From positions 2,045,726 to 2,109,725 of the forward strand of contig NZ_KI913949.1 of assembly GCF_000332095.2 (NCBI RefSeq): DNA of 64,000 nucleotides, in the 5' to 3' direction. The DNA comes from Leptolyngbya sp. PCC 6406. Lineage in GTDB: Bacteria > Cyanobacteriota > Cyanobacteriia > Phormidesmidales > Phormidesmidaceae. The notes under the pieces were generated by a model. That model saw only the letters and a program-made list of their open reading frames with translations, did not search any database and had not been told where the DNA came from. Positions 48,039-56,450 of the stretch are shown piece after piece. The translations under genes were made by a program, and so were the position numbers. Every line of letters begins with the position of its first letter. Positions within the stretch are counted from its first letter, which is position 1.

Positions 48039-48329
48039 CTAAGAATGATCATGGAGAACGAGATCGAGGGTTTGGATGTCTTGCTGAATGTCTTCTAGGG
48101 TAAGGGAGCGAATAGCACCGTGCTGTTTGAGAAAGGCATCGGTGGCGAGATGGGAGGGAAGGTTCAGCAGAGTTTGGACTTCGGCAGCACTCATGAGGTG
48201 ACTTGTGTAGGCTTCGATCGCGATTGTCTCCAAGACAGGCTGCGCCAACGCTTCGAGGGCACGTTGGCAGAGTTGGGGGAGATGGGACTGAAGGCGGCGT
48301 TCTAGGTCTTCAGGAATGGGGATCTTCAT
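48039..48329 (-). CDS. UPF0175-like small helical protein coupled to the NACHT gene
   Basis: 96 residues. N-terminal MKIPIPEDLERRLQSHLP, then IAIEAYTSHLMSAAEVQTLLNLPSHLATDAFLKQHGA, an HTH-like segment similar to UPF0175 antitoxins. Its ATG overlaps the TGA of the trypsin-NACHT-HEAT gene by 4 bp, so it is translated with it; GAGGAACTCCC upstream supports the start. No toxin follows directly; it may regulate the operon or modulate the NACHT protein. A relic copy is at 44600-44775. Confidence 0.7.
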   Translation of the reverse strand: MKIPIPEDLERRLQSHLPQLCQRALEALAQPVLETIAIEAYTSHLMSAAEVQTLLNLPSHLATDAFLKQHGAIRSLTLEDIQQDIQTLDLVLHDHS

Positions 48330-51300
48330 GGGAGTTCCTCCGTTTGTGTGATTTGGTTGCCGTGGACTTCATGGGCAAGATTGGCAATCGTGGCTCCTCT
48401 TAGATCATAGGTAACTGGGTTTGTTGCGGGGGTAAGATCGGTGTTCTGGCTGTTTTGCCGATCGCCCTCCTGCGCGGCTAAACAGGCTTGCCAAATCTCG
48501 TAGTTGTAGAATTGGCAGCGGTCTTGGATCGCGGCAATCGCATTCTCTAGGTAGTTCTCAGGTTGTCGCAAATGTAACTGCCACAAATCGGTTATGGTGG
48601 CAGCACTCCCCACCTTCCCTAAAGCGACAGCCGCGTCCCTACGGACATCCGAGTTCTGGTGTTGGAGATCCTGGAGTAAGCCCGGAATCGCCGCCTCACT
48701 CCCCACCTTCTCTAAAGCCGCCGCCGCGCTCCTACGGACATCCGAGTCCTGGTGTTGGATCGCCTGGAGTAAGGCCGGAATCGCCGCCTCACTCCCCAAA
48801 TTCCCTAAACCCTCAGCCGCGATCCAACGGACATGCCGGTCCTGGTGTTGGAGGGCCTGGAGTAAGGCCGGAATCGCCGCCTCACTCCCCAAATTCCCTA
48901 AAGCTTCAGCCGCGCTACTACGGACATTCCGGTCCTGGTCTTGGAGCGCCTGGAGTAAGGCCGGAATCGCCGCCTCACTCCCCAAATTCCCTAAAGCGTC
49001 AGCCGCGCTACTACAGACATACGAGTCCTGGTCTTGGAGGGCCTGGAGTAAACTCGGAATCGCCGCCTCACTCCCCAAATTCCCTAAAGCTTCAGCCGCG
49101 CTACTACGGACATTCCGGTCCTGGTCTTGGAGCGCCTGGAGTAAGGCCGGAATCGCCGCCTCACTCCCCAAATTCCCTAAAGCTTCAGCCGCGCTACTAC
49201 GGACATTCCGGTCCTGGTCTTGGAGCGCCTGGAGTAAGGCCGGAATCGCCGCCTCACTCCCCACCTTCCCTAAACCCTCAGCCGCTCTCCAACGGACACG
49301 CCAGTCCTGGTCTTGGATCGCCTGGAGTAAGTCCGGAATCGCCGCCTCACTCCCCAAATTCCCTAAAGCTTCAGCCGCGCTACTACGGACATGCGAGTCC
49401 TGGTGTTGGAGGGCCTGGAGTAAGGCCGGAATCGCCGCCTCACTCCCCACGTTCCCTAAACCCTCAGCCGCGCTCCTACGGACATGCGAGTCCTGGTGTT
49501 GGAGGGCCTGGCGTAAGGCCGGAATCGCCGCCTCACTCCTCACCTCCCCTAAACCCTCAGCCGCGCTCCTACGGACATGCGAGTCCTGGTGTTGGAGGGC
49601 CTGGCGTAAGGCCGGAATCGCCGCCTCACTCCTCACCTCCCCTAAAGCGTTAGCCGCGCTCCTACGGACATCCGAGTCCTGGTGTTGGAGGGCCTGGAGT
49701 AAGCCCAGAATCGCCGCCTCACTCCCCAAATTCCCTAAACCCTCAGCCGCGCTCCAACGGACATCCGAGTCCTGGTGCTGGAGCGCCTGGAGTAAGGCCG
49801 GAATCGCCGCCTCACTCCCCAAATTCCCTAAAGCTTCAGCCGCGCTACTACAGACATACGAGTCCTGGTGCTGGAGCGCCTGGAGTAAGCCCGGAATCGC
49901 CGCCTCACTCCCCAAATTCCCTAAAGCTTCAGCCGCGCTCCTACAGACACGCCAGTCCTGGTGCTGGAGCGCCTGGAGTAAGGCCGGAATCGCCGCCTCA
50001 CTCCCCAAATTCCCTAAAGCTTCAGCCGCGCTACTACAGACATACGAGTCCTGGTGTTGGAGGGCCTGGAGTAAGCCCGGAATCGCCGCCTCACTCCCCA
50101 AATTTCCTAAAGCTTCAGCCGCGCTACTACGGACAGACCAGTTCTGGTGTTGGAGAGCCTGGAGTAAGCCCGGAATCGCCGCCTCGCTGTGGCTGGTGGC
50201 CCAACAGTTCACTTTCAACCTTTTGGGGATGGCTCGGGCATCAATCCAGCCAACGGTTTTAGGTTGGAAAGATGCCTTGACCTCCCCTGCCAGTCTGGCC
50301 CCTAGCATCAAGTCCACGTCGTCCATCGCCAGCTTCACCACTCGCAAAGCCTGGGCTGATTCATTGACCAGGGCCAGCAATAGGGCAATAGGCTCTGTCC
50401 ACTTCAGCAGGTTGAGGTAGTCGCGCCTGAGTTGCTCATCGCTTAGCTCGGGAAGGCGTTGCAGCAACTGTTCGGCGGCGTAGTATTCCTGAATCAGTTG
50501 GTGGCGAAACTCGATTTGGTCGGTGGTGCGGTTTTGCAGTAGGTGGTATTTGAGCAGATCGTCTAAGATGTCGCGGACGGGGAATTTCTCCTGAGCAAAG
50601 AGTTGGCTGAGTTCCCGTTCGGCTTCGGTGCGGTGAATCGCCACGCGAAAATCCACCGGGGTTTCGCCCTGCATCATCCGGGCTGCTAGAGCCATCAACG
50701 CTTTTTTCCACAGACGGCGATCGCTCAGCGCCCGCACATCCCCCTTCAACAGCGCCACCTCATGCTTGCGCACACTGCTGTCCTCATACATCGTCGTAAA
50801 CGCCCGAAACACCTCAGCCAGGTTGGTGGGTATTTGCCGATTGGGCAACTGCTGAAACACCTCACACAGCATCCACAACAGCAGCGGCGTTTGACCAAAC
50901 TCCCGCAGACGGTCATTCAACTGCCGCAACATCGCCTCCCCCTGGTCGGGCACATAGGCGCGAATGAACGCCTGCATCTGCGGCTCGGTCAGGGGCTGCA
51001 TTTCCAGCTTTTTCTCAATTCCCAGGTCGCCCCCCAGCCCCAGATCCCGCGTGGTGAAGATCATCGGTACTTGGGGGTGATTGCGCCGAAAGGCTGTCAG
51101 TTGGGTTCTGGCCTCCTCCGAAGGCAACTCATTCAGCCCATCAATCAGCAGCAAAAAGCGGTTTTGGTCTAGCAACGTCGCCAGGGTAGCGTCATCCAGC
51201 CTCACCCCATGGCGCTTCAGAAACCCCCGCATCAGCCCCTCAAGGGAATCTTGCCAATAGCGCAACTCCACCAATACCGGTATCTTCTCTGGCCCCCCTC

Positions 51301-52453
51301 TCCCAGGTTTGGGAGAGGGGCTGGGGGTGAGGGCCTCCGGGGACTTGACTATAAACGAATTCGCCTCCTCCAACAGCAGACGAATCAACGCTGTAGATTT
51401 GCCCGATCCAGGCCGCCCCACCAGCAGCACATGGTCATCTGCATACTTGCGAATACCCTCTAGCACCGGCAACCGCTCAGTTTTCTCGCGCTTCTCCTGG
51501 GCGGGGTCTTTCTCCTCAGGGGTTTCTTTCTCAACGGTCTGCACCATCAGGCCAAAGTCAAAAATCGGCGGCGGCTCTGGTGCGGGTTGCTCTGGCGCAG
51601 GTTGCTCAACTTTGCCCGTGGCATCCGTCAGCGTGTAGTGCGTCCACCATTTCTCGTAAGTTGTGGTGAGGGTCTGCAAATAGGGCTCAAAGTCGATGTC
51701 AGCGAGACTGGAAGGCTGGTCGGCAGTTGAAGTTCCCGATTCATAGAAATTGATCTGCGTCCCAATCTTGTCTCTGCCAACCTTGTCGCCAGCGACCACA
51801 TCACCGTGGACTGTCTGACTCGCTTCAGCAGTTATCTCTGGCAAAAGTTGCGCCCAGCGTGAATCCTGCTGGTGAGCCTGCTGCTGAAGCTGCTGTAACT
51901 CAGGGAACTGCTCCAGAATCACGCGGGTGGGGATGGCACCACCACCGAGATCGGAAGCGCGATCGCGGGTAAAACTGACCAGGCCACAGACCCGGCCCGT
52001 CCTCAAATTCAGCAGTGGCGCACCACTCAACCCCGGACGCACCTGGGCCAGCTTAAACACCAGCAATTCCGAGCCATTCTCCGTCGCCGAGCCCTCACAG
52101 ACCCCCGTCACCGACGTTCCCTCAGGAAACCTATCGGGATAGCCATAGGTGTACAGGTCATCCTGGGGCTGAAACGCCTCCCCCAAATACCCACAGGGCA
52201 TCTCCCCATAGGGCAGTGGCGAGCATCGCAACAACGCCAAATCAACCTCAGGCCGCCGCTCCACCACCTCAGCTTCAGCCAAACGCCTCTGCTGCCCATC
52301 AATCTGAGCCCTAGCGTCACCCTGAAGCACCTGGACCACATGGTCACAGGTCAAAATCAATCCCGGCGCAACAAAGAACCCCGTCCCCCAGCCACCAGGA
52401 ACCGTAATCTTGACCGTACAATCTTGCAGCAGTTGATCAAGCCGCTGGGACAT
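48326..52453 (-). CDS. Trypsin-NACHT-HEAT STAND protein
   Basis: 1375 residues. (1) Trypsin-like serine protease, 1-~200: His38 (LTCDHVV), Asp71 (EVDLALLRC), Ser143 (PGLSGAPLLN), triad intact, no signal peptide. (2) Linker with a repeated GD-K motif at 216-230 (HGDVVAGDKVGRDKIG). (3) NACHT NTPase from ~325: Walker A GRPGSGKST at 346-354, Walker B FLLLIDGLNELPS, sensor MIFTTRDL, helical region to ~720. (4) Seventeen near-identical 31-residue HEAT-like repeats, 756-1282, plus a degenerate one. (5) C-terminal YDLRGATIANLAHEVHGNQI. Such proteins are thought to oligomerise on sensing a ligand through the repeats and then activate the protease; here this is inference. First gene of a tight minus-strand cluster. 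Confidence 0.9.
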   Translation of the reverse strand: MSQRLDQLLQDCTVKITVPGGWGTGFFVAPGLILTCDHVVQVLQGDARAQIDGQQRRLAEAEVVERRPEVDLALLRCSPLPYGEMPCGYLGEAFQPQDDLYTYGYPDRFPEGTSVTGVCEGSATENGSELLVFKLAQVRPGLSGAPLLNLRTGRVCGLVSFTRDRASDLGGGAIPTRVILEQFPELQQLQQQAHQQDSRWAQLLPEITAEASQTVHGDVVAGDKVGRDKIGTQINFYESGTSTADQPSSLADIDFEPYLQTLTTTYEKWWTHYTLTDATGKVEQPAPEQPAPEPPPIFDFGLMVQTVEKETPEEKDPAQEKREKTERLPVLEGIRKYADDHVLLVGRPGSGKSTALIRLLLEEANSFIVKSPEALTPSPSPKPGRGGPEKIPVLVELRYWQDSLEGLMRGFLKRHGVRLDDATLATLLDQNRFLLLIDGLNELPSEEARTQLTAFRRNHPQVPMIFTTRDLGLGGDLGIEKKLEMQPLTEPQMQAFIRAYVPDQGEAMLRQLNDRLREFGQTPLLLWMLCEVFQQLPNRQIPTNLAEVFRAFTTMYEDSSVRKHEVALLKGDVRALSDRRLWKKALMALAARMMQGETPVDFRVAIHRTEAERELSQLFAQEKFPVRDILDDLLKYHLLQNRTTDQIEFRHQLIQEYYAAEQLLQRLPELSDEQLRRDYLNLLKWTEPIALLLALVNESAQALRVVKLAMDDVDLMLGARLAGEVKASFQPKTVGWIDARAIPKRLKVNCWATSHSEAAIPGLLQALQHQNWSVRSSAAEALGNLGSEAAIPGLLQALQHQDSYVCSSAAEALGNLGSEAAIPALLQALQHQDWRVCRSAAEALGNLGSEAAIPGLLQALQHQDSYVCSSAAEALGNLGSEAAIPALLQALQHQDSDVRWSAAEGLGNLGSEAAILGLLQALQHQDSDVRRSAANALGEVRSEAAIPALRQALQHQDSHVRRSAAEGLGEVRSEAAIPALRQALQHQDSHVRRSAAEGLGNVGSEAAIPALLQALQHQDSHVRSSAAEALGNLGSEAAIPDLLQAIQDQDWRVRWRAAEGLGKVGSEAAIPALLQALQDQDRNVRSSAAEALGNLGSEAAIPALLQALQDQDRNVRSSAAEALGNLGSEAAIPSLLQALQDQDSYVCSSAADALGNLGSEAAIPALLQALQDQDRNVRSSAAEALGNLGSEAAIPALLQALQHQDRHVRWIAAEGLGNLGSEAAIPALLQAIQHQDSDVRRSAAAALEKVGSEAAIPGLLQDLQHQNSDVRRDAAVALGKVGSAATITDLWQLHLRQPENYLENAIAAIQDRCQFYNYEIWQACLAAQEGDRQNSQNTDLTPATNPVTYDLRGATIANLAHEVHGNQITQTEELP
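48607..50187 (-). repeat. 17 tandem 93-bp units encoding HEAT-like repeats
   Basis: Each unit encodes SEAAIP.LLQALQHQD followed by a variable stretch and then SAAEALGNLG. Units are almost identical at DNA level, including synonymous positions, which implies recent expansion or gene conversion. Differences gather at repeat positions 17-22 (for example SYVCS, WRVCR, SDVRW, SHVRR, RNVRS). Confidence 0.95.
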
Positions 52454-55169: not shown

Positions 55170-56450
55170 TCACCAGGTCCTGGCTTCGCAGGCTAGGAGC
55201 TTGTCCAACGTTGCGATCGCGGTTGTATCCCCACTGGCCCGCACCGCCTGCTCCATAGCCACATTGATCAGCTCCATCCGCAGCCGCATGTGGTATGCCT
55301 GCCGCACCTCGTTGCCGCCGCCATGGCCAGAGCGAGGCAACCGCTCCCCCAAGGGCTGGGAGAGGGGACGCCCCAGCTTAGCGGCTAGGGCCGTAATGAC
55401 GTAGCGCTGCTCAGGACGAGCCAACCCCTGCCAGGTGGCGATGGGGGTGGACAATAGGGTACTGATGTCACTGCGGGTGGCCCGCTCCTGGAGCCAAACC
55501 TCAACGGTGGAGATCGGCCAGTCGGGAGTCTCCTCATCCACCTTGGCGAAGGCGTGGGCCTCAGCGTAGGAAATACTCCCATCCTGGTCATAGTCCGCCG
55601 AGGGAACAGAATTGCCCACGCGATCGCGGCCACTGAGTCCGGCAAAAAAACTAGAACTATAGTCCTTGTAATCGGCCTCGTTCACCAAGGGCGTACAACC
55701 CACAGAGGGGCGTTCCTTCACCGTGGCAAAGAAGCCACACCGACTTTGCAGGGCCACCGATCGCCGGGGATCGCCGCCCTCATAGATTAGATTGGCAAAG
55801 GATCCCGCATAGCACTGGGCCATCATGGTCACAAAGGGAATCTCCTGGGGCCACTGATCCAACAGCGTCCCCAGTTCCTGCACCGAGAGACGCTGCTCGC
55901 CCCAGTGGATCAGGGCGTTGTTGTTGAGGTTGGCCTGATTCAGCTCACCATGCCCCGTGAAGTAGAAAAAGGCGGGGCAACCCCGGCTCCCAGCAGGGGT
56001 AGTGGGATAGCGCTGAAACCAGCTCTGGGTATTGCTCCGGGTAGCCGCCCCTTGCAGGTTAGGAATCTCCGGTACCTTGAATTGCTCCCGCCCCGCAGGA
56101 TCCAAATACCGCACCGTGGCCCGCCCATCATTGCCATTCGCAAAAAACACGGAGGCTCGACCAAGATCAATCCCCAAGAAATCCAGGGTGCGCTGGAAAT
56201 AGAGCACATTCTTTTCCAAGGCAATTTCGTTGTAGCTGGGGGCTCCTCCCCCCGCTACAACCAGAAATTCTGTCGGCTGGTCGAGGGTTTCAGCCCGAGT
56301 GGCGCTGGAAGAACCCACCACCCATTGCCATCCCTGGCCAATCAGGTGGGGTTGGTTGCCCAGCAAAATCGTGGCAATCGCCGCCACAATCACCAAGAGG
56401 GCAATCCGCCGCTGACGCTGTTGAGAAAAAGACATGGCAGGGGTAGCCAT
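55170..56450 (-). CDS. Membrane-anchored or exported caspase-like cysteine peptidase with an EF-hand
   Basis: 426 residues. A basic N-terminus and hydrophobic stretch 16-30 (IALLVIVAAIATILL) suggest a signal anchor or signal peptide. The C14/C13-like core has catalytic His167 in FFYFTGHGEL and Cys213 in VTMMAQCYAGSF. A canonical 12-residue EF-hand loop occupies 286-297 (DYDQDGSISYAE), so activity may depend on calcium. Orthocaspases are usually cytosolic, which makes the N-terminal segment notable. A C13 (legumain-like) assignment is also possible. Single gene between argJ and the HPPD-type gene. Confidence 0.75.
   Translation of the reverse strand: MATPAMSFSQQRQRRIALLVIVAAIATILLGNQPHLIGQGWQWVVGSSSATRAETLDQPTEFLVVAGGGAPSYNEIALEKNVLYFQRTLDFLGIDLGRASVFFANGNDGRATVRYLDPAGREQFKVPEIPNLQGAATRSNTQSWFQRYPTTPAGSRGCPAFFYFTGHGELNQANLNNNALIHWGEQRLSVQELGTLLDQWPQEIPFVTMMAQCYAGSFANLIYEGGDPRRSVALQSRCGFFATVKERPSVGCTPLVNEADYKDYSSSFFAGLSGRDRVGNSVPSADYDQDGSISYAEAHAFAKVDEETPDWPISTVEVWLQERATRSDISTLLSTPIATWQGLARPEQRYVITALAAKLGRPLSQPLGERLPRSGHGGGNEVRQAYHMRLRMELINVAMEQAVRASGDTTAIATLDKLLACEARTW

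What the first reader, a model, noticed from the sequence alone, without database searches (positions are those of the whole stretch)
55170..56450. Caspase-like peptidase with signal anchor and a canonical EF-hand loop
His167/Cys213 dyad, hydrophobic N-terminus and a perfect 12-residue EF-hand (D286, D288, D290, S292, S294, E297) combine in one protein. Metacaspases often need calcium but rarely through an EF-hand; an exported, calcium-gated caspase homologue would be unusual.
Basis: partly seen in the sequence, partly recalled or inferred. Interest (0 to 1): 0.5.

Follow-up and report, generated by a model that had tools for sequence, protein, structure and literature searches.

The report
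Exported caspase-like protein with EF-hand loop
A cyanobacterial gene encodes a probably exported, caspase-shaped protein-cutting enzyme with a calcium-binding-type loop that its relatives keep as strictly as the catalytic residues; the same kind of loop recurs at the same place in many other bacterial caspase relatives, but calcium binding has not been shown.

Summary
Observation confirmed. The 426-aa protein (55170-56450, minus strand) has the His167/Cys213 dyad, a hydrophobic N-terminus and a canonical EF-hand loop at 286-297. Alone it matches nothing in Pfam, NCBIfam, PADLOC or PHROGs. It belongs to an unnamed family: 64 of 68 related loci are cyanobacterial by title, 2 Archangium, 2 planctomycete. 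Among 83 distinct rows His is kept in 82, Cys in 83, and the loop's first Asp and last Glu in 82 of 82 that have the position. The AlphaFold model has a legumain/metacaspase fold (Z about 20).

The premise of rarity fails. The loop joins helices alpha4 and alpha5 of the p10 half, and such a loop follows the same helix in other bacterial caspase homologues: 27 of 90 C14 loci from three phyla, about 0.1 expected from shuffles. Exported prokaryotic caspase homologues, and EF-hands in archaeal ones, are in print.

Most likely: an exported clan CD cysteine peptidase with a resident calcium ion in p10, rather than a calcium-switched one. Calcium binding and protease activity are untested. A new variant of a known kind.

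The parts
55170..56450 (-). whole gene, 426 aa, caspase-fold protein
   Evidence: relatives; dN/dS 0.10-0.24 in 19 pairs of close relatives
56358..56405 (-). hydrophobic N-terminal segment (residues 16-31): signal anchor or signal peptide
   Evidence: hydropathy 2.60, 65 of 83 relatives at 1.6 or more, 13 of 83 lipobox-like; helix 9-31 in model
55476..56267 (-). caspase-fold core (about residues 62-325)
   Evidence: model and fold search
55950..55952 (-). catalytic His167 codon
   Evidence: 82 of 83 rows
55812..55814 (-). catalytic Cys213 codon
   Evidence: 83 of 83 rows
55737..55739 (-). Cys238, possible disulfide partner
   Evidence: Cys in 80 of 81 rows with a residue; pairing is inference
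55695..55697 (-). Cys252, possible disulfide partner
   Evidence: 83 of 83 rows; model pLDDT only 61 for residues 251-260; pairing is inference
55632..55661 (-). helix 264-273 (alpha4 of p10)
55560..55595 (-). EF-hand-type loop, residues 286-297
55539..55568 (-). helix 295-304 (alpha5 of p10, the F helix)
55491..55523 (-). conserved motif at residues 310-320 after alpha5, possible substrate-cleft loop
   Evidence: D310 in 80 of 81 rows with a residue; T315 invariant and P312, S314, E317, W319, L320 nearly so in 42 rows; role is inference
55173..55475 (-). C-terminal helical region, residues 326-426
   Evidence: helices 326-333, 337-343, 346-358, 379-406, 409-422

Best explanation
The protein is a membrane-anchored or secreted cysteine peptidase of the caspase fold (clan CD, between families C13 and C14). 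His167 and Cys213 cut peptide bonds in proteins outside the cytoplasm. The EF-hand-type loop joins helices alpha4 and alpha5 of the p10 half and most likely holds one Ca2+ ion that keeps this half folded and places the conserved motif at 310-320 near the substrate cleft. Outside the cell calcium is usually plentiful, so the ion is more likely a resident cofactor needed for folding or activity than a switch. Shown here: sequence, conservation, predicted fold, matching place of the loop in other bacterial caspase homologues. Inferred: export, Ca2+ binding, catalysis, the effect on the cleft.
For: Confident model (mean pLDDT 89, pTM 0.84; blocks 281-300 at 97) with clan CD relatives at Z about 20 over about 220 residues. 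Dyad and loop about equally conserved across 83 rows. Profile-profile match to 9 EF-bearing C14 domains with His, Cys and loop in register, probability 99%, E 1.9e-17; with the loop masked on both sides still 98% and 1.7e-12, and the helix after the loop still in register. In the model of such a C14 domain the loop 201-212 is flanked by helices 186-197 and 210-224. The linker before the loop varies in length among relatives while the loop stays. Export: 65 of 83 with a strong hydrophobic segment against 9.8 expected, 13 of 83 lipobox-like, and two further conserved Cys. dN/dS 0.10-0.24 in 19 pairs.
Against: No calcium-binding or protease assay exists here. In the window protein the preceding helix is detached from the loop. 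The acidic residue two before the catalytic Cys, typical of metacaspases (recalled), is absent (A, S or V in the 66 rows), so P1 preference cannot be read off. One distant relative (L122) has lost the catalytic His and kept the loop. The orthocaspase MaOC1 is calcium-independent (PMC7475262, passage); whether it has this loop was not tested. 18 of 83 relatives fall under the hydropathy threshold. The remark on extracellular calcium is general knowledge.
Confidence: 0.58

Rival explanations
1. Calcium-gated enzyme: the loop is empty at rest and calcium arrival outside the cell, or at a damaged envelope, switches the peptidase on.
For: Loop conserved like the dyad. Several clan CD enzymes need or are activated by Ca2+ (table in PMC4357240, passage).
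Against: A lone EF-type loop embedded in a folded core suggests a structural site more than a switch (inference). Nothing in these calls bears on affinity. An exported site would usually meet calcium at once (general knowledge).
Confidence: 0.2
2. The loop is a purely structural turn that needs no metal, or binds another ion such as Mg2+.
For: Position 6 is not Gly in 15 of 82 rows and position 7 varies widely; no ion in the model.
Against: Ligand positions 1, 3, 5 and 12 are D, D/N, D/N/S and E in 82 of 82 rows, which a plain turn would not require.
Confidence: 0.12
3. The protein is not a peptidase in the cell: a pseudo-enzyme, or a transpeptidase/ligase like plant asparaginyl ligases, which share the fold.
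For: Peptide ligases and the GPI transamidase subunit are among the close fold matches. One distant relative lacks the His (L122).
Against: Dyad kept in 82 of 83 (His) and 83 of 83 (Cys) rows.
Confidence: 0.1

Closest known systems
Legumain, peptidase family C13
   Same: Same fold (human legumain 7fqk_A, Z 20.4, rmsd 3.4, 222 residues) and His-Cys dyad. 29 of 42 family members match the C13 model at E up to 1, best 1.8e-5.
   Different: The window protein does not match the C13 model at E up to 1. Legumain is listed as activated by pH, not calcium (PMC4357240, passage). 14% identity in the structural alignment.
Metacaspases (C14B), e.g. Arabidopsis metacaspase 9
   Same: Same fold, tied with legumain (9n3e_A, Z 20.3, rmsd 2.9, 224 residues). 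Metacaspases mostly depend on Ca2+, AtMC9 being an exception (PMC5756287, passages).
   Different: The TbMCA2 calcium site is four Asp (D173, D189, D190, D220; PMC4357240, passage), not a 12-residue EF loop. No acidic residue two before the Cys in 66 rows.
Prokaryotic orthocaspases / bacterial C14 proteins
   Same: A subset carries the same kind of EF loop at the matching p10 position. Forms with one N-terminal helix or signal peptide are known: 46 sequences (PMC3501461, passage).
   Different: The window protein is not among the 11 C14 places found in its own genome. Orthocaspases were described as lacking p10 and hence calcium-independent (PMC5756287, passage).
Archaeal orthocaspases with an EF-hand motif
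   Same: EF-hand motif in 7 archaeal caspase homologues (PMC6426788, passage).
   Different: Listed there among additional domains on the termini; here the loop lies inside the caspase fold. Whether those 7 are the same case was not tested.

Membership tests
Clan CD cysteine peptidases | caspase-type fold | tested here: met
   model pLDDT 89, pTM 0.84; Z about 20 to legumains and metacaspases
Clan CD cysteine peptidases | catalytic His then Cys | tested here: met
   H167 in 82 of 83 rows, C213 in 83 of 83; in register with the C14 dyad
Clan CD cysteine peptidases | peptidase activity with strict P1 preference | not testable with these tools
   needs an enzyme assay
Legumain family C13 | match to Pfam PF01650 over its curated score (22.8 bits) | tested here: not met
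   window protein: no match at E up to 1. Relatives: 27.2 bits in G172 (family member), 17.7 in L058
Legumain family C13 | cleavage after Asn | not testable with these tools
   needs an enzyme assay
Caspase/metacaspase family C14 | match to Pfam PF00656 over its curated score (21.4 bits) | tested here: not met
   window protein: no match at E up to 1; not among the 11 C14 places in G000. 23 of 42 members match at E up to 1
Caspase/metacaspase family C14 | acidic residue two before the catalytic Cys, as in metacaspases (motif recalled) | tested here: not met
   A, S or V at 211 in the 66 rows; one distant relative, L131, has E
EF-hand | 12-residue loop with ligands at 1, 3, 5, 7, 9, 12 | tested here: met
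   D286, D288, D290, S292, S294, E297
EF-hand | helix directly before and after the loop | tested here: inconclusive
   window protein: F helix 295-304 attached, preceding helix ends at 273. C14 relative: helices 186-197 and 210-224 around loop 201-212
EF-hand | binds Ca2+ | not testable with these tools
   needs a binding assay or a structure

The most novel reading that the evidence does not exclude
Bacterial caspase-fold proteins share an integral EF-hand: alpha4, a calcium loop and alpha5 of the p10 half form a helix-loop-helix that predates the split between C13-like and C14-like bacterial families and has been lost in many lines. Many proteins filed as p10-less, calcium-independent orthocaspases would then have a p10 half with a calcium site unlike that of eukaryotic metacaspases, and the exported family seen here would be one that kept it nearly without exception.
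Probability: 0.35. Interest if true: 0.65.

Novelty: new variant of a known kind. Interest (0 to 1): 0.45.

Why it matters
The passages seen hold that orthocaspases lack p10 and so escape calcium control (PMC5756287). A conserved EF-type loop inside the p10 half of an exported family, and of 27 of 90 C14 loci from three phyla, predicts that a whole set of bacterial caspase homologues needs calcium by a site not described for metacaspases in the passages seen. One purified domain with and without EGTA would test it. It also gives an unnamed, patchily spread cyanobacterial family (11 of 292 genomes with a strong match) a likely activity and location.

Tried and rejected
Rejected: that the EF loop is a chance match (38 of 20,000 shuffles; 82 of 82 rows). 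Rejected: that the combination is unique to this gene. Led nowhere: sequence search of solved structures with the protein and with its profile gave no caspase-type hit; EF-bearing C14 queries hit metacaspases, MALT1 and GSU0716 (3bij), but in each row the matched stretch ended before the loop, so no solved structure with this loop was found that way. Phage and plasmid collections: no match at E 1e-5. Gene neighbourhood: the most widespread neighbours reach 14 of 69 loci; apart from the mixed response-regulator cluster and the M28 gene, none exceeds 9. No partner was found for the window copy. Promoter and terminator scan uninformative.

My first C14 survey used too strict a motif and missed dyads in about half the loci; with match coordinates replaces it. 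One search took the 30 loci returned by each of three searches, the best-scoring places and not a random sample; two planctomycete positives (L170, L190) are near-identical and from one genome; L181 is a poor fit to the context. The position of the loop was tested by profile alignment for 9 C14 domains chosen because they carry it, and by eye for the rest. L092, with Ser at loop position 3, was not counted as positive.

Rows dropped: L062, L064 and L067 (frame broken in the assembly) before alignments; 7 repeat rows of the same genes before the count of 83. Alignment A1 holds 42 of 69 sequences.

No paper in the held library was found to describe an EF loop inside the bacterial p10 half; searches. 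Papers: passages of PMC6426788, PMC5756287, PMC7475262, PMC4357240, PMC3501461; PMC8283722 search listing only. Subscription papers are mostly not held.

Full report
What is there. The minus-strand ORF 55170-56450 encodes 426 residues. It is single-copy in its genome: one match at E up to 0.01. It lies between a divergent gene resembling 4-hydroxyphenylpyruvate dioxygenase (266.7 bits, below the model's cut-off of 277) and, 85 bases downstream on the same strand, argJ, followed by trpD.

Family. On its own the protein matches no model in Pfam or NCBIfam at E up to 1, in PADLOC at E up to 1 or in PHROGs at E up to 0.1. A scan of genome contigs gave 68 related loci, 64 cyanobacterial by record title, 2 Archangium (about 53% identity) and 2 planctomycetes (31-34%). 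Whole-genome searches found strong matches in 11 of 292 genomes of the window's phylum plus one weak match. In the phylum of the Archangium genome 12 of 146 genomes matched: 4 strongly, 8 distantly. In that of the planctomycete genome 5 of 149 matched: 3 strongly, 2 weakly. The spread is patchy. Close relatives evolve under purifying selection, dN/dS 0.10-0.24 in 19 pairs.

Fold. Scanned one by one, 29 of 42 members match Peptidase_C13 and 23 of 42 Peptidase_C14 at E up to 1, best 1.8e-5 and 5.7e-5; EF-hand_5 is matched by 6 of 42, best 0.054. The AlphaFold model is confident (pLDDT 89, pTM 0.84) except for the N-terminal 60 residues, the stretch 251-260 and part of 371-380. Against solved structures human legumain (Z 20.4) and Arabidopsis metacaspase 9 (Z 20.3) tie; caspase-8 follows at 17.4. 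So it is a clan CD fold, and C13 against C14 is not decided.

Conservation. In 83 distinct rows, His167 is kept in 82, Cys213 in 83, Asp286 and Glu297 in 82 of 82 with the position, Cys238 in 80 of 81 and Cys252 in 83. One distant relative, L122, has Phe in place of His. The linker before the loop is long in the window family and short in some distant relatives, while the loop itself stays.

Export. The N-termini are not alike in sequence, yet 65 of 83 have a 17-residue segment of mean hydropathy 1.6 or more, against 9.8 expected, and 13 of 83 have a lipobox-like motif. Independent kinds of export signal point the same way. The conserved pair Cys238/Cys252 would fit a disulfide outside the cytoplasm; that is inference.

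The loop is not peculiar to this family. A profile of the family aligned with a profile of 9 cyanobacterial C14 domains that carry such a loop: probability 99%, E 1.9e-17, with His, Cys and loop in register; with the loop masked in both, 98% and 1.7e-12, and the helix after the loop still in register. The model of one such C14 domain (pLDDT 82.5, seven sequences; the other four models 73-78) shows helix 186-197, loop, helix 210-224. Among 30 C14 loci from each of three searches, 5 (the window's phylum), 16 (phylum of Archangium) and 6 (phylum of the planctomycete) carry the loop after the matching helix; shuffles give 0.05, 0.00 and 0.05. Those loci are best-scoring matches, not a random sample.

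Mechanism. The best-supported reading is an exported cysteine peptidase with a resident Ca2+ in the alpha4-alpha5 junction of p10. Between this junction and the C-terminal part lies the motif at 310-320, conserved to distant relatives, which may form part of the cleft; the ion could hold alpha5 and that motif in place. Steps shown: fold prediction, conservation, matching position. Steps inferred: ion, catalysis, export, cleft.

Against the literature. Passages seen: EF-hand motifs in 7 archaeal orthocaspases (PMC6426788); metacaspase homologues with one N-terminal helix or signal peptide, 46 sequences (PMC3501461); orthocaspases as p10-less and calcium-independent (PMC5756287); MaOC1 calcium-independent (PMC7475262); calcium sites of clan CD, with TbMCA2 using four Asp (PMC4357240). 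I found no description of an EF loop inside the p10 half of bacterial caspase homologues in ten searches of the held library.

Verdict. Interest 0.45; novel reading 0.35 likely, 0.65 if true.

Noticed in passing
window 48326-52453 (-): 1375-aa protein with a trypsin-like domain, NACHT and long HEAT repeats: a defence-type architecture, two genes away from the caspase-like gene.
   Followed up: partly
L058:3990-5927: The Archangium violaceum relative carries a C-terminal AHH nuclease domain (PF14412, E 1e-14): a caspase-like domain fused to a toxin-type nuclease. The same genome has a second copy, 461-aa open frame.
   Followed up: partly
L009, L011, L019, L023, L024, L025, L027, L029, L040, L042, L046, L053, L061, L064, just upstream of the caspase-like gene: In 14 of 69 loci a gene of one sequence cluster lies directly upstream on the same strand; the one tested (L029) is peptidase M28, E 1.4e-34. 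Not seen beside the window gene.
   Followed up: partly
L122: Distant relative with Phe instead of the catalytic His but an intact loop and Cys: possibly a pseudo-enzyme.
   Followed up: no
L088, L096, L097, L102, L103, L106, L109: C14 loci with SGYG in place of SGHG (Tyr for His, as in pseudo-orthocaspases); 0 of these 7 has the EF loop.
   Followed up: no
G000 (window's genome): 11 C14 places in a 5.8 Mb genome, none of them the window gene.
   Followed up: no
L062, L064, L067: Family members whose frame is broken in metagenome assemblies.
   Followed up: no
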